A stretch of DNA of 64,000 nt from Saitoella complicata NRRL Y-17804 (Eukaryota; Ascomycota; Saitoellomycetes; Saitoellales; Saitoellaceae). The stretch lies in NCBI RefSeq assembly GCF_001661265.1, contig NW_017567009.1, positions 1 to 64,000 of the forward strand, read 5' to 3'. The notes under the pieces are model-generated. The model saw only the letters and a program-made list of their open reading frames with translations. It did no database searches and had not been told where the DNA came from. The position numbers and the translations under genes were made by a program. Each line of letters opens with the position of its first letter. Position 1 is the stretch's first letter. This document shows, one piece after another, positions 1 through 16,763 of the stretch.

Positions 1-133
1 ACCCTAACCCTAACCCTAACCCTAACCCTAACCCTAACCCTAACCCTAACCCTAACCCTAACCCTAACCCTAACCCTAACCCTAACCCTAACCCTAACCC
101 TAACCCTAACCCTAACCCTAACCCTAACCCTAA
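1..133. repeat. Telomere, (CCCTAA)n
   Basis: About 22 uninterrupted copies of the hexamer CCCTAA (TTAGGG on the other strand) run from the first base to position 133. This is the canonical vertebrate/filamentous-fungus telomere repeat, so the window starts at a true chromosome end. The repeat passes without any subtelomeric spacer straight into protein-coding sequence at 134. Confidence 0.98.
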
Positions 134-616
134 GACTCCGCCGAAGACGCAAAGCCGTGGGCCAATGATGCCGTCGCATCGTTCCGCCTCTCTCCACAGG
201 ATTATCATCGCTATCATTCGCCCGTCTCTGGCACCATTAGGTGGTGGAAGGAGCTTGACGGGGAATACTACGGGGTTGATCCAATCTGCCTCCAGAGCGA
301 CATTGACATCCTCACCGCAAATGCTCGTAGTGCGTTCTGCGTCAACTCCCCAGCATTCGGAGAGGTACTCTTCGTCGCCATCGGTGCGGAGGACGTCGGT
401 ACAGTGAAACTCAATGATTCCTGTAAGACCGAGGGAGCGGAGATCAAGAAAGGAGAAGAAGTGGGCATCTTCGAATTCGGCGGTAGTTCGATTATCGTTG
501 CGTTCGAGAAGGGCAGGATTGAGTTCGATGAGGATTTGAGGGAGGTATCGAATCAGTCGATCATGATGGATATCGACGTCGGAATGAGCTTGGGAAGGGC
601 CACGACGCCGCAGTGA
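134..616 (+). pseudogene. Phosphatidylserine decarboxylase, C-terminal fragment capped by the telomere
   Basis: One open frame runs from the first non-telomeric codon (134) to a TGA at 614-616, 160 codons with no start codon of its own. It reads as the catalytic C-terminal third of phosphatidylserine decarboxylase, which makes phosphatidylethanolamine. Visible landmarks are QDYHRYHSPVSGTI near 197-238, a DGEYYGVDPI segment, FGGSSIIVAFEKGRI with the GSS self-cleavage/pyruvoyl site near 478-520, and the family ending IDVGMSLGRA. The frame is intact, so the loss is purely of the 5' two thirds, replaced by telomere. Without promoter and N-terminus it should be non-functional unless transcribed from the telomere. 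Identification is by family motifs; truncation by chromosome breakage is inference. Confidence 0.85.
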
Positions 617-1202
617 AATGCCTGTGCCGTCGATCTTTGTGTTTACTTTGTCGTCCCAATGTACCCATCCATTGTATGAGTTTGCCTCTAATGTTCGAAC
701 CCGCATGTGCCCTAAAATCTGCTTTGCACCTTAAATCAGCCACATGAAGGCAAATAGTTTATGCAAAGTCACTTGCGTTGGTCGCGGGGGCAAAGACGAT
801 TAGGAATGGGCATACCTCTAGGAAATCACCTCCAAGCCGGCAACATTCTTGCTCCACCACTGGTTCAACAGACGACTGACGCCACCGACCTCGGTCGAGA
901 CAGGCATACAAAAGCAAAGCAGTTACGAGGGGCTTATGGGGTCTTTTCCAAAGAAAAAATATGTTCCTATTACCCTCCTATGGCCTCGTCGTCAGATCTT
1001 GAAGTCTGCTCGTTCACGGATTCCCACGGTCACATTACATTAGCGGAGCCATAAAATGCACGGGAACCTCGACCTAGCTATACGTGATTCGCAACTGGAG
1101 TGAAGCCATATTAAATGTTCATTTTATTTTTTGTGCAACAGCCCACAACATCCTCGTTCAAGATGTTTCGCACGCGTGCTGCATGTACACACATATTCAC
1201 AG
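617..1202. other. Subtelomeric intergenic region, no gene seen
   Basis: No recognisable gene. Short open frames (for example 761-1054 on +) have no family resemblance and no splice partners. The last part is the presumed promoter and 5' leader of the deaminase-like gene. Confidence 0.5.
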
Positions 1203-2330
1203 ATGGAAGTTGAACCATCGAATACTGCGGCCGCGGACGTGGTGCTGTTGGAGACTCATGTGCAATATTCTGTCGGATCACCACTCTACACCGAGGCACA
1301 ACTTGCCTTTTGCCGCTTGGTTCCCAAGATTGAACTCCACGCACACCTAAACGGCTCCGTACGGTTATCCACATTGCGTGAGCTGGCGGCGATGCACAAC
1401 ATCGATCCATCGTCTGCGATGTTCCTCAACCATATGGATGATCGAACATTGACTGAGTGCTTCGGTGTTTTCGAGGTCGTACACAAGATCACGACCAGTC
1501 ATCAGGTTCTGCGGCGTATTACGAGGGAGATGTGTGAGGATGCGGAAGAGGATGGGGTGGTGTATATGGAAATCAGGACAACTCCAAAAGACAGACCAGA
1601 GGTGAATATGACCAAGAGATCTTATGTGGAGGCGGTACTCGAGGGCATTGATGAGTATCGGACGGCGGGAGGTGCCCATTCCTGCATCACCAAGCTTTTG
1701 CTCAGCATCGATCGACGAGAGAATGGAACGAGTGCGATGGAAACCGTGCACCTAGCAGCATCCTTCAGTGGCAACTGTATCATCGGCATTGACCTATCGG
1801 GCAATCCCTCGCTTGGAAACTTCTCCATATGGCTTTCGGCACTCCGGCTCGCTGGCGATTGCGGCTTGAAAGTCACCCTTCACGCAGCCGAAGTCCCCAA
1901 TGCAGAAGAGATGCACGCAATGCTCAATTTTGCCCCGGATCGCTTTGGTCACGTCTGCTTCCTTGATGACGCATGTGCATCTCGACTCGTTGAATCCCGC
2001 ATTCCACTCGAGCTCTGTTTGACGAGCAATTTGATTACGAAGTTGGTGGCATCCTACGCTCAACACCACTTCATCGATCACTACCGTGCCGGTCGAAACC
2101 CGATTGTGCTATGCACGGACGATAGCGGTGTTTTTGGCACGTGTCTAAGTAGAGAGTATGCAATCGCTATGGGTACTTTTGGCCTAAGTGAATGTGACGT
2201 CTTAGAAATGGCGAAGGGAAGTTTAGAGGCAGCCTTCCTGAGTGAGCAGGAGAAGGAAGCGTTGAAGACAAGGGTAAACGACGCAACGGTCGCGTTGCAG
2301 CGAAGGTGCAAATCGGGCTCTTTACCGTGA
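1203..2330 (+). CDS. Adenosine deaminase-like protein (N6-methyl-AMP deaminase type)
   Basis: Single-exon gene, 375 aa, from the first in-frame ATG at 1203; the open frame extends upstream but without an ATG. It belongs to the metal-dependent adenosine/AMP deaminase TIM-barrel family. Near residue 46 it has IELHAHLNGS, where the HLNGS form marks the ADAL/MAPDA branch rather than classical adenosine deaminase (HLDG/HLEG). Further on are HAAE near base 1880 (catalytic His/Glu), CLTSN near 2020 and LCTDDSGVFGT near 2110 (the Asp-Asp pair that binds zinc and water). Known members hydrolyse N6-methyl-AMP to IMP, clearing modified nucleotides from RNA turnover in the cytosol. It converges on the minus-strand thioesterase, with 192 bp between stops. 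It is the first intact gene from the telomere. Confidence 0.9.
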   Translation: MEVEPSNTAAADVVLLETHVQYSVGSPLYTEAQLAFCRLVPKIELHAHLNGSVRLSTLRELAAMHNIDPSSAMFLNHMDDRTLTECFGVFEVVHKITTSHQVLRRITREMCEDAEEDGVVYMEIRTTPKDRPEVNMTKRSYVEAVLEGIDEYRTAGGAHSCITKLLLSIDRRENGTSAMETVHLAASFSGNCIIGIDLSGNPSLGNFSIWLSALRLAGDCGLKVTLHAAEVPNAEEMHAMLNFAPDRFGHVCFLDDACASRLVESRIPLELCLTSNLITKLVASYAQHHFIDHYRAGRNPIVLCTDDSGVFGTCLSREYAIAMGTFGLSECDVLEMAKGSLEAAFLSEQEKEALKTRVNDATVALQRRCKSGSLP

Positions 2331-2522
2331 AAGCTGTGACCGTTAATAATCGAGAGAGCACTGGTCGCATTATAAATCTGTAGGCAACGCGATCGACTTC
2401 GCCCTCCAGATGCTTTGCCGGAGATCAGGCTAACGGCGTGCATCAGATATTCCGTATGCAACCAAGCCGCTGCCGCTCCCTTCTCCCCCCTCCTCCTTCA
2501 CGCATTCTACCCGTAGACCTCT

Positions 2523-3580
2523 TTAAATCTTCGCCGTCACTTTCCCCTCCGCATGCCCAACCTTCCCCGCATCAACAATGGTGCACAAATGTCTGCTCAA
2601 CGCCAATACCTCCCCCTTCTCGTCTCTCACCTCGACATCGATATCGAACCGCCTATACGATCTGTCAGCGTGCCTGAACCATACATTTCATTCTCCACAG
2701 CACCACCGACCCATTCTTCACCATCTTCGCGATGTAGTGTATGTGTATCCACTGCGGATCAAGCGATGTCGGCGCCCGAAATTGTATCTCGAGCGTGAGC
2801 GTTGGAAACCAGGCCACCTTTCCTTCGCCGAGTTGTCCGTGCAGGTATGGCGGGGGTACGCTCCTAATCCAAAGTGTGAGTCACCAAAACCTTACGGGAA
2901 GAGTTCTTTGATGAGCTCACAAGCAATCGGCGAACATTGCGACGACGGGTTCATCGATAGGCCGAGACGGTTCGTTAACCAGGCGAATCCATTGTAGACG
3001 CTCGGTGCGCTTGAGTTCTTCGATAGCGGGATCGACGCAGATCTCTATGTTGTCAATTGCCGGCCTTTTAACGGGGCCCAATGTAGTTGTGATGGGGTGA
3101 CAATCCTTAAATAGTGTGAATGGCGCGAGAGAATGTTGAGGGTACGTTGGGCCTTTTTCGGCGGAAAAGGACGAGTGCGTCGAGAGAGTCGTAAGAATAT
3201 GTCGCTTCTGTGCCATCTCCGTGTTAGCATCCGCAGCAACAGGAAAGGATTACTGAGCCTTTAAACACCTCCTGCCACATCTCCACAGAACATACGGCGT
3301 AAGTCCGGCCCCTCTTCACGTCTTTCACTGTGATCTCCACGTCCCTCCCCGCATCGGGCTTGTTCAAGAAGGTGACATTGATATGAAAACAATCTTTGTG
3401 CTTGTCACCCGTGACAGAGACGTTATGCGTTTTCAGGGCATTGAGAACGATGGCGACGAGGTAGCCGCCGAGAGGGGCATTGCCAATTGTCCAGTTGGTG
3501 GAGAGATGGGCGGAGAATGTGGTTAATCCGGACGATGAGGAGATGGGATGAACGGCGATGACTTCGTCGAATGATGGCAT
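2523..3580 (-). CDS. Acyl-CoA thioesterase-like protein (TesB/4HBT_3 type), possible peroxisomal form
   Basis: Four exons fit: 3580-3254, 3216-2921, 2863-2699 and 2661-2523, with introns of 37, 57 and 37 nt, giving 308 aa. The first intron carries TGCTAAC; the third donor (GTGGAG) is the least certain. The start is the ATG at 3580 (MPSFDEVIAVHP); the frame runs further upstream only from a GTG. The protein matches the thioesterase-like superfamily (double hotdog): NWTIGNAPLGGYLVAI near residue 30, RTYAVCSVEMWQ near 95, then WFPTLTLEIQFRAP, and RRFDIDVEVRDEKGEVLALS near the end. Such enzymes release free fatty acids from acyl-CoA. The C-terminus is AKI, a tripeptide known to act as a PTS1 signal in Candida tropicalis trifunctional enzyme. 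The next gene, on the same strand, also ends in a PTS1-like tripeptide. Confidence 0.8.
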
Positions 3581-3875
3581 TTCTCTTGGTTGAAGCTGTC
3601 GAGGTGTTTGGAGTGAGTTCACGTTCCATTTGAAGAGACCTAGTCGCTCACCGTCTGTTGCTTGCTATTGCGGAGGTCGGCGTCGGCGCCGACGGAGCCG
3701 CGGATGCGGGGTGCACGGATTCCGAAAAGCTCGAAGAAGTCCGTGGACTCCGAATTCACTTACTCATGACAGGTTGGTAGTGTAGTGTGATGTCAAATTT
3801 ACGATATACCATCTATCGTACAGAAACACAACTTCGTTCCTTCACGCCCGGTCTGTTGTACCACCTCGGAACTCC

Positions 3876-4767
3876 TCACATCTTGCTCGGCATCCTCGTC
3901 GCTCCATCCAACCGAATCACAGCTCCATTCAACATAGGGTTCTCCACAATGGCTTTCACAACCAAGGCAAACTCCTCCGCTTTTCCCGGTCTCTGCGGCC
4001 ACTCTAGCACCTTCAGTAGACTCTTCCGTGCCTTCTCTCCGAGTTTACTCGTCATGGCTGTCTCAAACATACCCGGTGCGATACTCACAGCTCTAATGCC
4101 GTAACGGGCGAGATCTCGTGCGAGGGGAAGGGTGAGCGAGCGAATTGCGCCTTTGGAGGCAGAGTAAGCGAGTTGACCGGGTTGTCCGTCGAAGGCCGCG
4201 GCGGACGATACGGTGATGATCACACCCCGTTCGCCGTCAGGATCCGAACCTTGGTTCGTAGTCATGTGTGGGAGGAAGAGACGGATGAGATCGATTGTAC
4301 CTGTGACGTTTATTTGAAGGACGCGATTGAACGCGGTGATATCGAGAGGCTTGTTATCTTTGTCGATGATCTGACATACTGTTACTTCCCTTCATTCGCA
4401 TAAGACAGCATGGTACGACTTACCTTTGCCGCCGACGCAACTCCAGCACAGCACACGATTCCTCCCAACTCGGCCTCCGTTTCTTTCGCCCACTCCATCA
4501 CACCCGCGACGGCTTTCTCGATGTCGGAAGTCTTGGTAACATCAACTTTCCAGAACTTTGCTTTCCCACTTGAAGCCTCAATAAGACCTTCGCCAGGGTT
4601 CAGGTCCAGGACTGCTACGTAAGCACCGTGTGCGAGGAGGATCTCGACGGATGCGCGGCCGAGGCCGGAGGAGCTATTTTTGTGTCAGTCCTTTGCAGTT
4701 TTTCGACAAGGGGAAAGGTGCACGCATACCCGCCGGAGATAACGAAGGTCTTGTTAGATGTCTTCAT
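3876..4767 (-). CDS. Short-chain dehydrogenase, 3-hydroxyacyl-CoA dehydrogenase type-2 (HSD17B10) like
   Basis: Three exons, 4767-4730, 4673-4424 and 4370-3876, give 260 aa. Both donors are canonical (GTATGC, GTAAGT). The first junction rebuilds the cofactor loop ISGGSSGLGRA at about residues 10-20. Downstream are VLDLNPGEG, NVTGTIDLIRLFLPHM, VSSAAAFDGQPGQ, the catalytic YSASKG and RYGIRAVSIAPGMF. The ending LNGAVIRLDGATRM is diagnostic for the HSD10 branch, which oxidises 3-hydroxyacyl-CoA in fatty-acid and branched-chain breakdown. The last three residues, SKM, fit the PTS1 consensus (S/A/C-K/R/H-L/M), suggesting a peroxisomal rather than mitochondrial enzyme. It lies 296 bp upstream of the thioesterase in the same direction, consistent with shared lipid work. 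Confidence 0.88.
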
Positions 4768-5107
4768 CGCTTTTGCTATCCTTCTATGTGTGTGGTGGTT
4801 CAAGTCGGTGCGGTGGTGTACGTTGACGTTTGTGTGGGGTGCGGAGTGCGGGGCCAAACTGGGGTGCAGAACAAGCACCCTGAGGACCCACCCTCGACAA
4901 CCTTACCATGCCTAGTCATGTATTACTTTTGCAATCGTATTGTAGATGAATCTCATCCTACGCGGAATAAATGGTCATATCGCTTTGCGAGACGAGCATT
5001 CCAACTCACTTCAGCCATTGAATTTGATGTTCTCTGCACGGAGCAGTTGTGCGCGGAGCGTTCGGGTCCTGAAAGCCATTCGCGATGAGTTACTTGAAGA
5101 CAATTTG

Positions 5108-8281: not shown

Positions 8282-9428
8282 ATGGCGATCTCACCAATTC
8301 CCTCGTCCTCCCTCTCCGGCGTCAAACTCGCCTATGCCACTCCCTCCCTCGGCATGCACGAGAATCACACTCTTCCTCTCAAGCTCAAGGCTGTCTCTAA
8401 ACACGGCTATGCCGGTGTCGAGATGGGATTTGACGATCTGTGCTCCTACGCAGAGCAAACATTCGGTGACGAATTCAAGGGCGAGGATGACATTCCCACC
8501 TTGGTGAAGACCGCGGAGAAGGTCTATGAATTGTGTCAGGAACTCAAGTTGGAAGTCATCTGCCTCCAGCCATTCTCCGATTTCGAAGGTATGTGTTCCC
8601 TCCTCTACCTTCCTCAATGAATTCCTAACCGATCGTACAGGCATCACCGACCCCACCGAACGCTCCGCCAGGTTCGAGACAGCCAAGAACTGGATGGCAA
8701 TCATGCGCGCCCTCCACACCCCCATGCTCCAAATCGGCTCCACCGACAACCCTTCCCGTTCCTCCTCCTACACCACCATCGCCTGCGACCTCCGTGAACT
8801 CGCCGACCTCATCGCAGCCAAAGTCCCCAACGGCAGAATCGCCTACGAACCCTGGTGTTGGGGAGCCTGGATCGACACTTGGCGTGGGTGTTGGGAAATC
8901 TGCAAACTCGTCGATCGCCCCAACTTCGGTTTGTGTTTGGATACATTCCAGAGTGTCGGACGGGAATGGGCGGATCCCACGAGTGAGAGTGGGAGGATTG
9001 AGGAGGGTGGGATTACGGAGGAGAAGTTGACGGCGAGGTTGCAGTACAGTATGGAGGAACTCGCGAAGACTGTGGATCCGGAGAAGATCTTTTATTTCCA
9101 GATCTCGGATGCGTATCATATGCAACCACCCTTGACGCCGGATCATGAGGAGATGAAGGCGAATGAGGGCACGCCCGCTCGTGGAGTGTGGTCCCATGCG
9201 TTCCGTCCTCTCCCCTTTGACGATGAACTCAAGGGGAGCAAGAAGGGATATTTACCTATCAAGGAGTGTTTGAAGGCTGTGTTTGCTACGGGATGGAGAG
9301 GATGGGTGTCTATGGAGGTGTTTGAGGGCGAGGAGATGGGGAAGGAGAATGAGAGCGTGCCCGATGAGTGGGCGAGAAGGGGAAAGAAGAGCTGGGAGGG
9401 ATGCGTTGCCGCGATGGCTGAGGAGTAG
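8282..9428 (+). CDS. Xylose isomerase-like TIM-barrel protein (sugar isomerase/epimerase or 3-dehydroshikimate dehydratase-like)
   Basis: Two exons, 8282-8588 and 8641-9428, with a 52-nt intron (GTATGT...GTACAG), give 364 aa. The protein opens with VKLAYATPSLGMHENHTLPL, followed by KHGYAGVEMGFDDL and KLEVICLQPFSDFEGITD. Later come GRIAYEPWCWGAWIDTWRG, RPNFGLCLDTFQS, IFYFQISDAYH and WRGWVSMEVFEG. These are the metal-binding E, D, H and E positions of the AP-endonuclease-2/xylose-isomerase-like barrel. In fungi this fold covers the QutC/QA-4 3-dehydroshikimate dehydratases of quinate use as well as uncharacterised sugar epimerases. I cannot choose between them from sequence alone. No quinate-pathway neighbours are present. 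The start is the first ATG, shortly after the tRNA. Confidence 0.82.
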
Positions 9429-14182: not shown

Positions 14183-15037
14183 ATGCGATTCCACATCGCA
14201 GCGCTCTTTCTGGCCTCGCTCTCGTTGGTGTCGCTGACCGAGTCCTCCCCTCTCGTCAACGTCAAGAGGGAGGCCGGAGCTCTCGAGGCTCGTACGGCTC
14301 AGGCGTATGGAGCTCCTGCTGCTCTTCACACTTACGTCTCGACGACAAAGACGACGACGACGGTGAAGCCTACTACGACAAAGACTACCACTACCTCGAA
14401 GAAGACTACTACCAAGAAGACCTCGACGAAGAAACCTACGACGACCAAGTCTACTACCAAGTCTACGACCAAGTCTACGACCAAGAAGAGCTCGACGAAA
14501 AAGGCCTCTACCACTAAAAAGCCTACCACGAAGAAGACCTCCGCAAAGAAAACCACTGCCAAGACTACGGCAAAGACTACCACTACCGCCGTGAGGCCCA
14601 CCGCCGTTGCGAAGGCCGCTGCTGTTCCCACTTCGAAGACGACCACGACGAAGGCTACTACTACGATTTCGAAGAAGGTGATTACCACGTCTACGAAGCC
14701 GACTACCACGTCTACGATTAAGATCACCACTACGACCAAGAAGCCGACTACTACTACGACGAAGAAGACCACTTCCAAGACGACCACCAAGGCGCCTACA
14801 ACGACGCTGAAGACTACGACGAAGGCTGCTACCACAACTGCGAAGACTACGACGAAGGCTGCTACTACGACTAGTAAGGCTGCTACTACGACATCGAAGG
14901 CTGCTACTACGACTAGTAAGGCTGCTACTACGACATCGAAGGCTGCTACTACGACTAGTAAGGCTGCTACTACGACATCGAAGGCTGCTACTACGACCAG
15001 TAAGGCTGCTACTACGACATCGAAGGCTGCTACTACC
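14183..15037 (+). CDS. GH128-type wall protein, first (5' partial) copy, ends in assembly gap
   Basis: Starts MRFHIAALFLASLSLVSLTE (signal peptide), then a propeptide-like KREAGALEARTAQAYGAP and a long Thr/Lys linker (KTTTT, KKTTTKKTS repeats). It runs into the N run at 15038 before reaching any catalytic domain. This copy carries the real-looking promoter and leader. Its sequence is the same as the second copy (offset 904) except for one additional 42-nt double repeat unit. It is most likely the same gene assembled twice, or one allele; a true tandem duplicate cannot be excluded. Confidence 0.6.
14855..15037 (+). repeat. 21-nt coding minisatellite (KAATTTS), copy 1
   Basis: About nine tandem 21-nt units of the form AAGGCTGCTACTACGACATCG, alternating ACTAGT/ACATCG variants in a 42-nt higher-order unit, encode KAATTTS heptads. 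The array is cut by the N run. The matching array in copy 2 is 42 nt shorter. Confidence 0.9.
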
Positions 15038-15080
15038 NNNNNNNNNNNNNNNNNNNNNNNNNNNNNNNNNNNNNNNNNNN
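15038..15080. other. Assembly gap (43 N)
   Basis: A run of N within the repetitive linker. The sequence resumes six bases upstream of a second identical start codon, with no promoter of its own, which points to a scaffolding or haplotype join rather than to natural structure. Confidence 0.98.
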
Positions 15081-15086
15081 AACACA

Positions 15087-16763
15087 ATGCGATTCCACAT
15101 CGCAGCGCTCTTTCTGGCCTCGCTCTCGTTGGTGTCGCTGACCGAGTCCTCCCCTCTCGTCAACGTCAAGAGGGAGGCCGGAGCTCTCGAGGCTCGTACG
15201 GCTCAGGCGTATGGAGCTCCTGCTGCTCTTCACACTTACGTCTCGACGACAAAGACGACGACGACGGTGAAGCCTACTACGACAAAGACTACCACTACCT
15301 CGAAGAAGACTACTACCAAGAAGACCTCGACGAAGAAACCTACGACGACCAAGTCTACTACCAAGTCTACGACCAAGTCTACGACCAAGAAGAGCTCGAC
15401 GAAAAAGGCCTCTACCACTAAAAAGCCTACCACGAAGAAGACCTCCGCAAAGAAAACCACTGCCAAGACTACGGCAAAGACTACCACTACCGCCGTGAGG
15501 CCCACCGCCGTTGCGAAGGCCGCTGCTGTTCCCACTTCGAAGACGACCACGACGAAGGCTACTACTACGATTTCGAAGAAGGTGATTACCACGTCTACGA
15601 AGCCGACTACCACGTCTACGATTAAGATCACCACTACGACCAAGAAGCCGACTACTACTACGACGAAGAAGACCACTTCCAAGACGACCACCAAGGCGCC
15701 TACAACGACGCTGAAGACTACGACGAAGGCTGCTACCACAACTGCGAAGACTACGACGAAGGCTGCTACTACGACTAGTAAGGCTGCTACTACGACATCG
15801 AAGGCTGCTACTACGACTAGTAAGGCTGCTACTACGACATCGAAGGCTGCTACTACGACCAGTAAGGCTGCTACTACGACATCGAAGGCTGCTACTACCA
15901 CCACCAAAGTCTCGACAACCACCTCCAAGGCCGCCTCCACCACCACCAAAGCGACTTCCACTACGTCAAAAGCCTCAACAACCACCTCTCAGAAATACAC
16001 CGGTCCCACCGCACTCTACACCGGCCCCACCACCGGAAAACGCGGCCTCGCCTGGCCATGGGACAACACCGATCCAGTCTCCCTCTTCTCCACCCCAAAA
16101 GTCTCCTGGCTCTACGATTGGTCACCCTCCCCCGTCGCCGCAATTCCCTCCAACATCGAATTCGTCCCAATGCAATGGAACGGCGTCAACATCCAAAACC
16201 TGGACGCGATCGTCCAAGAGTACGCGTACGAACATATTCTCGGATTCAATGAGCCCGAGAGGACGGATCAGAGTAATATGAATGCGACGTATGCTGCACA
16301 GTTGTGGAAACAATACATGAACCCCTTGTCGAAGAAGTATGGTATCAAACTCGGTGCGCCGGCCATTACGAACGACCCGGAGGGAATTCCGTGGATCGTG
16401 GATTTCTTCACCGCGTGTAATGGCTCCTGCATCGTCGATTTCGTGCCGTTGCATTGGTATGGGACGACGCTCGGGTCGCTTTACGACTTTTTCTGGACTG
16501 TGTATGGGGCCACTGGAAATCAGTATCCTGTGTGGATTACGGAGTGGGCGTTTACAAATTGGGATACGACGAATCCCATGAACGCTACAGAAGTCGAGCC
16601 TTTGATGGAGCAGGCGGTTGCGTACCTTGATTCTGTTTCCATTGTTGAGCGGTATGCATATTTTGGTGCTATGAGGAATACGGGAAGTGTTGGGCCGGCT
16701 AGTCAGATGATTGGAAGTAATGGGACGTTGACGTGGTTGGGTCAGCAGTATGTTAATATTTAG
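15087..16763 (+). CDS. Asl1-type glycoside hydrolase (GH128, beta-1,3-glucan-binding/degrading wall protein) with Thr-rich linker
   Basis: Single exon, 558 aa. It has a signal peptide (residues 1-20), a Thr/Lys-rich O-mannosylation-type linker (about 50-310) and a C-terminal TIM-barrel of about 240 aa. The barrel starts at KRGLAWPWDNTDPV and contains VSWLYDWSP, EFVPMQWNG, HILGFNEPERTDQSNM (acid residue in NEPE), FVPLHWYG, YPVWITEWAF (second acid) and ERYAYFGAMRN, ending LTWLGQQYVNI. These are the landmarks of the Glyco_hydro_cc/GH128 family (S. pombe Asl1, plant-like endo-beta-1,3-glucanases). It should be secreted to the cell wall. The linker holds a KAATTTS minisatellite (15759-15899). Only this copy is complete. 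Confidence 0.9.
   Translation: MRFHIAALFLASLSLVSLTESSPLVNVKREAGALEARTAQAYGAPAALHTYVSTTKTTTTVKPTTTKTTTTSKKTTTKKTSTKKPTTTKSTTKSTTKSTTKKSSTKKASTTKKPTTKKTSAKKTTAKTTAKTTTTAVRPTAVAKAAAVPTSKTTTTKATTTISKKVITTSTKPTTTSTIKITTTTKKPTTTTTKKTTSKTTTKAPTTTLKTTTKAATTTAKTTTKAATTTSKAATTTSKAATTTSKAATTTSKAATTTSKAATTTSKAATTTTKVSTTTSKAASTTTKATSTTSKASTTTSQKYTGPTALYTGPTTGKRGLAWPWDNTDPVSLFSTPKVSWLYDWSPSPVAAIPSNIEFVPMQWNGVNIQNLDAIVQEYAYEHILGFNEPERTDQSNMNATYAAQLWKQYMNPLSKKYGIKLGAPAITNDPEGIPWIVDFFTACNGSCIVDFVPLHWYGTTLGSLYDFFWTVYGATGNQYPVWITEWAFTNWDTTNPMNATEVEPLMEQAVAYLDSVSIVERYAYFGAMRNTGSVGPASQMIGSNGTLTWLGQQYVNI
15759..15899 (+). repeat. 21-nt coding minisatellite (KAATTTS), copy 2
   Basis: About 6.7 tandem 21-nt units, the same as the array at 14855 but one 42-nt double unit shorter. 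It is followed by unique TTTKVSTTTSKAAS-coding sequence leading into the catalytic domain. Confidence 0.9.

What the first reader, a model, noticed from the sequence alone, without database searches (positions are those of the whole stretch)
1..616. Telomere repeats fused directly onto an intact reading frame of phosphatidylserine decarboxylase
The CCCTAA array stops at 133, and the very next codon (GAC, 134) is already in the PSD frame, which stays open for 160 codons with all family landmarks including GSS. There is no subtelomeric spacer, transposon or decay between telomere and gene. This is what a chromosome break healed by de novo telomere addition would leave, and the absence of frame damage suggests the event is recent. 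A telomeric transcript could in principle read into the fragment.
Basis: partly seen in the sequence, partly recalled or inferred. Interest (0 to 1): 0.72.

Follow-up and report, generated by a model that had tools for sequence, protein, structure and literature searches.

The report
Telomere-capped stump of a decarboxylase gene
At this probable fungal chromosome end the telomere repeats sit directly on the back half of a phosphatidylserine-decarboxylase-like gene, the expected scar of a broken chromosome healed by telomerase; many other ends of the same genome look alike, so it is a clear example of a known process rather than a new one.

Summary
A perfect CCCTAA array (1-133) joins, at base 134 and in frame, the C-terminal 160 codons of a PSD-like gene (PF02666, 107.9 bits, model positions 61-193 of 198). 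Best explanation: terminal loss healed by de novo telomere addition. A paralogue on contig C5 (335 aa from the Met I chose; 120 of 151 aligned residues identical) shows that about 175 N-terminal residues are gone. A search of the assembly for that half found only the four intact PSD-family loci. The stump has no in-frame ATG before codon 144, and its frame is the one forward telomere frame with stops, so it should make no enzyme.

It is not a special end. Of 54 of the 68 contig ends read, 45 carry an array of 55-150 bp lying directly on other sequence. Contig C30 shows a second truncated gene, with the telomere supplying the stop codon. "Recent" is only weakly bounded. The species is probably Saitoella complicata (inference). 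Without reads a misjoin cannot be excluded; the assembly has N gaps. Verdict: a new instance of a known kind. A post-hoc excess of C just before the added TTAGGG is the most interesting by-product.

The parts
1..133 (+). terminal telomere array, C-rich strand (CCCTAA)22.2, at the left end of contig C18
   Evidence: 100% matches; the same kind of array at 45 of 54 ends read
133..134 (.). junction ...CCCTAA|GACTCC; on the G-rich strand ...GGAGTC|TTAGGG; no spacer
   Evidence: belongs to the commonest junction class, CCCTAA|G (15 of 45 ends)
134..616 (+). 3' stump (160 codons plus stop) of a PSD-like decarboxylase gene; about 175 N-terminal residues, promoter and start codon missing
   Evidence: 79% identical to the C5 paralogue over query residues 6-157
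1203..2330 (+). adenosine-deaminase gene (375 codons from the ATG at 1203, one open frame), about 1.07 kb from the array; the nearest gene to this end, after the stump, that I identified
   Evidence: PF00962, 163.1 bits, model positions 1-329 of 330, for 1206-2327; only copy found in the genome at E <= 0.001; ATG at 1203 read by eye

Best explanation
The chromosome once ran on beyond this point and carried a complete PSD-like gene, an old paralogue of the gene now at C5:24793-25800. A break or gradual loss of the end removed everything distal, including about the first 175 codons and the promoter, and telomerase then added TTAGGG repeats to the exposed 3' end (...GGAGTC). The stump is a beheaded pseudogene whose frame has not yet decayed. 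Shown here: the junction, the homology, the missing half, and comparable junctions elsewhere in the genome. Inferred: the break itself, its order in time, and telomerase as the agent.
For: Junction and stump. The paralogue on C5 lies in one 378-codon open frame (335 residues from the Met I chose; an earlier Met exists in the frame); the stump starts opposite its residue 176, with 120 of 151 aligned residues identical. The missing half of the C5 type (177 aa query, E up to 10) matches only the four PSD-family loci on C5, C13, C17 and C1, and no stray fragment. Past constraint: identity by codon position 0.834/0.874/0.457, pN/pS 0.216 (bootstrap 0.147-0.308), dS about 2.1, saturated. Similar junctions elsewhere: at 9 of the 45 junctions a homologous unbroken stretch was found at another end, and the telomere enters shared repeats at different points, with 0-2 shared bases in all 16 comparisons; for example C6L, C11R, C21L and C23L against C5L. 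Second gene case: on C30 a gene reads into its telomere, the C10 paralogue runs about 47 codons further, and the first repeat supplies TAG. Telomere-fused truncated genes are accepted as healing scars in Plasmodium (PMC5550746, passages), and truncated terminal elements with de novo telomeres are documented in Magnaporthe (PMC7367193, passages).
Against: No reads, second isolate or relative genome was available (one search says no relatives are held), so the unbroken allele was not seen and the C5 copy is too diverged to show the junction bases. The assembly has N gaps, and one array lies inside contig C5 just after an N run, so a telomere-bearing piece has been placed oddly at least once; the C23L array is preceded by 13 other bases. 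In several of the 16 comparisons the alignment starts 2-6 bases after the junction or lies in minisatellite-like repeats (C9L, C22L, C27L), so the donor register is uncertain there. The genome search scores only its best candidates.
Confidence: 0.85

Rival explanations
1. Assembly artefact: telomeric sequence was joined to the broken edge of an internal contig; the real gene is whole and continues elsewhere.
For: The assembly has gaps (window 15038-15080) and an internal array on C5 right after an N run. Array lengths of 55-150 bp could be limited by read length.
Against: No N between array and gene. The missing 5' half, if present, should appear as another fragment or contig end, but one search finds only the four PSD-family loci. 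45 of 54 ends read carry arrays at or within 13 bases of the contig terminus, as expected for real ends.
Confidence: 0.08
2. Telomere capture: a break in the gene was repaired by recombination with, or break-induced copying of, another chromosome's telomere, rather than by telomerase acting on the bare end.
For: Cannot be told from healing when the captured tract is pure TTAGGG, as it is here.
Against: Capture would often bring some subtelomeric sequence (general knowledge); none lies between array and gene.
Confidence: 0.05
3. The stump still has a use, for example as a regulatory RNA or as a donor for gene conversion with the C5 copy.
For: The frame is open and well conserved.
Against: No start codon before codon 144 and stops in the telomere frame. 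The two copies differ at more than half of third codon positions, so there is no sign of recent conversion. The conservation is explained by the time before the break.
Confidence: 0.02

Closest known systems
Telomere-healed chromosome ends of Plasmodium falciparum 3D7 (PMC5550746; passages seen)
   Different: There 5 of 28 ends show the hallmarks (4 inside a var gene, 1 just downstream of an intact one) against a background of conserved subtelomeric elements; here direct abutment is the rule in the ends read, and the cut gene is a metabolic-enzyme paralogue.
Terminal truncations with de novo telomeres in Magnaporthe/Pyricularia oryzae (PMC7367193, PMC8381367; passages seen)
   Same: TTAGGG added directly to truncated terminal sequence; where truncated MoTeR elements had no seed, a terminal C was noted in five of six, like the commonest class here (I assume the same strand is meant).
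   Different: There shown with parents, progeny and reads, and mostly with 1-7 base telomeric seeds; partly linked to telomeric retrotransposons. Here inferred from one assembly, and no such element was noticed at C18L.
Taphrina chromosome ends (PMC7036362; passages seen)
   Same: TTAGGG ends and more than 20 chromosomes; a relative of Saitoella, if the species inference is right.
   Different: The passages deal with fusions, breakpoints and effector clusters; they do not describe telomere-cut genes.
Phosphatidylserine decarboxylase (PF02666) and PsiD-like L-tryptophan decarboxylases
   Same: The C5 paralogue's five PDB matches at E <= 0.001 are two PSD and three tryptophan-decarboxylase sequences.
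   Different: The C18 copy lacks the N-terminal half and cannot be a working member.

Membership tests
chromosome end healed by de novo telomere addition | telomere repeats joined directly to non-telomeric sequence at a contig or chromosome terminus | tested here: met
   array 1-133, gene from 134, contig end; that the contig end is a chromosome end is not tested
chromosome end healed by de novo telomere addition | distal part of the interrupted sequence is lost | tested here: met
   about 175 N-terminal residues of the C5 type missing; no stray copy found in the assembly
chromosome end healed by de novo telomere addition | little or no homology between array and pre-break sequence at the junction | tested here: inconclusive
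   pre-break C18 sequence unknown and C5 too diverged; 0-2 shared bases at 9 other ends
chromosome end healed by de novo telomere addition | an unbroken parental or sister allele exists | not testable with these tools
   no relatives held for this genome
phosphatidylserine decarboxylase (PF02666) | score above the Pfam cut-off | tested here: met
   107.9 bits, cut-off 22
phosphatidylserine decarboxylase (PF02666) | complete domain with the Asp region, the His motif and the Gly-Ser self-cleavage site | tested here: not met
   DYHRYHSP and FGGSS present; the part with the VAD stretch, which one search aligns with PAD of PDB 7cnw (E. coli, by recall), is missing. The catalytic roles are recalled
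phosphatidylserine decarboxylase (PF02666) | translatable gene with start codon | tested here: not met
   first in-frame Met is residue 144 of 160

The most novel reading that the evidence does not exclude
Most chromosome ends of this fungus may be healed breaks made by a telomerase that starts in a default register on ends lacking a telomeric seed. The commonest junction is CCCTAA|G, that is C|TTAGGG on the extended strand. Of 45 ends, 18 start with a full repeat (7.5 expected if phases were equal), and 15 of those 18 have C before it (6.0 expected). C18L is one of them.
Probability: 0.25. Interest if true: 0.45.

Novelty: new member of a known kind. Interest (0 to 1): 0.3.

Why it matters
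It is a base-exact example of gene loss by terminal truncation in a fungus, probably an early-diverging ascomycete. The 45 telomere junctions read in one genome are a natural data set on where new telomeres start, and the window shows an adenosine-deaminase gene with no second copy found about 1 kb from a telomere array. If the C|TTAGGG excess holds, it can be tested against the telomerase RNA template.

Tried and rejected
Segmental duplication with C5: rejected. Between C5:10001-40000 and the window, blastn found only the PSD stretch. tblastn with C5 open frames of 80 codons or more found the PSD stretch (also through its antisense frames) and one distant pair (C5:28376-32440 against window 8483-9323, 25-33% identity, E 8e-18).

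Telomere junctions aimed at genes: rejected. An open run of 100 codons or more starts at 10 of 29 junctions with at least 850 bases available, against 49% of 4000 random positions, all from this window.

Accelerated decay of the stump: inconclusive. C18-specific against C5-specific changes are 11:4 with C17 as outgroup, 8:6 with C13, 4:2 where both outgroups agree.

G after the array: 26 of 45, expected 14.9, P 5e-4. It was noticed after looking; the split by phase (23 of 29 against 3 of 16) is post hoc. Four further terminal full-repeat junctions (C21R, C23R, C27R, C31R) give G in 2 of 4 and do not strengthen it. Also against it: in Magnaporthe most junctions have seeds (19 of 24 new events, 17 of 23 old elements; PMC7367193, passages), and the template of Aspergillus fumigatus and Neosartorya fischeri has C, not G, after UAA (PMC3603654, passage), which would not pair with a terminal C.

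Other ends as gene cuts: C10L and C31L lie in multicopy, transposon-like sequence (11 and 15 matches, themselves and exon pieces included). C29L (DUF4939) and C10L (DUF4218) are below the Pfam cut-offs; C2L, C12L, C20L, C30L and C31L gave no family at E <= 0.01. C20L is single-copy. Of the 16 frames in the main list, 7 were scanned, plus P0001; the short right-end frames were not scanned.

One search failed by a script error and by its time limit; one search is the working version.

Full report
What is there. The window is the first 64 kb of contig C18 (367,729 bp) of a 14.12 Mb, 34-contig genome. Bases 1-133 are a perfect CCCTAA array. Base 134 begins a frame that stays open to the stop at 614-616 and matches PF02666 at 107.9 bits over model positions 61-193 of 198. 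The next gene that I identified is an adenosine deaminase at 1203-2330 (PF00962, 163.1 bits for 1206-2327), the only copy found at E <= 0.001. GC is 0.521 for 134-5000 and 0.515 for the whole window.

What was lost. The genome search finds four other PSD-family loci (C1, C5, C13, C17). The closest, at C5:24793-25800 on the minus strand, lies in a single 378-codon open frame; from the Met I chose its product has 335 residues (an earlier Met exists and the start is not verified). The stump lines up with its residues 176 onward: 120 of 151 aligned residues identical, nucleotide identity by codon position 0.834/0.874/0.457. dS is near 2.1 and saturated and pN/pS is 0.216, so the two genes are old paralogues separated mostly under constraint. 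The missing half searched on its own (177 aa, E up to 10) matches only those four loci. The lost part includes the VAD stretch that one search aligns with PAD of PDB 7cnw (E. coli PSD and the catalytic role of that Asp are recalled). The C5 protein's five PDB matches are two PSD and three tryptophan-decarboxylase sequences, so 'PSD-like' is the safer name.

Can it act? The PSD frame continues back into the telomere as Pro-stop-Pro-stop, and the first in-frame Met is residue 144 of 160. A transcript from the telomere side would therefore make no PSD fragment of note.

How recent? Under neutral substitution alone (transition bias 2 assumed, indels ignored) the frame stays open in 955 of 2000 simulations at 0.05 changes per site, 472 at 0.1 and 145 at 0.2. 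The intact frame therefore sets only a loose upper limit. Lineage-specific changes lean slightly to the stump (11:4, 8:6, 4:2, depending on outgroup), which is inconclusive.

Is this end special? All 34 left ends and 20 of 34 right ends were read: 14 left ends at 10 kb, the others at 230-1632 bases, and C18L from the window. Arrays are present at 28 of 34 left and 17 of 20 right ends, 55-150 bp, median 128; C23L has 13 other bases outside its array. Several ends share repeats, and telomeres enter these at different points: C11R, C6L, C23L and C21L within the element seen at C5L; C22L and C9L within C24L; C14L within C27L. For 9 of the 45 junctions a donor stretch at another end could be laid alongside; all 16 comparisons show 0-2 bases shared with the array. 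For C9L, C22L and C27L the donor is minisatellite-like, and some alignments begin 2-6 bases after the junction, so those registers are uncertain. On C30 a gene runs into the telomere, its paralogue on C10 continues about 47 codons, and the first repeat gives a TAG. Junctions are not enriched in open frames (10 of 29 at 100 codons or more, against 49% of random positions of this window). The simplest reading is repeated terminal loss and healing at unselected places, of which C18L happens to cut a recognisable gene.

A by-product. Of 45 junctions, 18 begin with a full repeat (binomial P 1.7e-4 against 1/6), and 15 of these 18 have G next to the array, i.e. C before TTAGGG (P 2e-5). Over all phases G follows in 26 of 45, expected 14.9. 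The pattern was noticed after the fact, and four extra full-repeat ends gave 2 of 4. In Magnaporthe, truncated elements without a seed had a terminal C in five of six cases, but most junctions there had seeds (PMC7367193, passages). In two Aspergillus relatives the template has C after UAA (PMC3603654, passage), which would not explain it by pairing. It is worth a proper test, no more.

Limits. The assembly contains N gaps. An array inside C5 at about 415 kb follows directly on an N run, and C4 carries a short internal array near 325 kb, so odd placements occur. No reads, isolates or relatives were on hand. The species is inferred: PMC4392786 lists Saitoella complicata with 14.14 Mb and 35 scaffolds (passage). 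A search for Saitoella with telomer* gave nine papers; I saw their listing and passages of one (PMC7036362), so I cannot say that these ends are undescribed.

Literature. Searches. Telomere repeats fused into truncated genes are known from Plasmodium (PMC5550746, passages), and terminal truncation with de novo telomeres from Magnaporthe/Pyricularia (PMC7367193 and PMC8381367, passages). The finding is a new member of that kind.

Noticed in passing
L053 (C30:1-10000), 131-1420, minus strand: A second telomere-cut gene: it reads into the telomere, lacks about 47 C-terminal codons of its C10 paralogue, and the first telomere repeat supplies a TAG stop.
   Followed up: partly
45 contig ends: Excess of CCCTAA|G junctions (C before TTAGGG on the extended strand); may show a default start register of telomerase. 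Post hoc; four extra ends gave 2 of 4.
   Followed up: partly
L099 (C5:414820-415120): A telomere array of about 145 bases inside contig C5 directly after an N gap: probably a scaffolding error or a chromosome end placed inside a scaffold.
   Followed up: no
L098 (C4:324780-325080): Short interstitial array with head-to-head TTAGGG/CCCTAA repeats in mid-contig: possible old end-to-end fusion.
   Followed up: no
window 14370-15961: The same set of tandem repeats appears twice, 904 bases apart, on either side of an N gap at 15038-15080: probably one stretch duplicated at the gap by the assembler.
   Followed up: no
L074 (C15:1-937) and L056 (C33:1-937): The left ends of C15 and C33 are identical over 937 bases in opposite orientation: the two contigs probably overlap and belong to one chromosome.
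   Followed up: no
L076 (C17:1-1000): C17 starts within the 3' end of 18S rRNA (1-57), with 5.8S rRNA at 252-405: the contig breaks at the rDNA array.
   Followed up: no
C20L and C29L, minus strand: Open frames that run into the telomere in the Leu-Gly phase, which has no stop codon.
   Followed up: no
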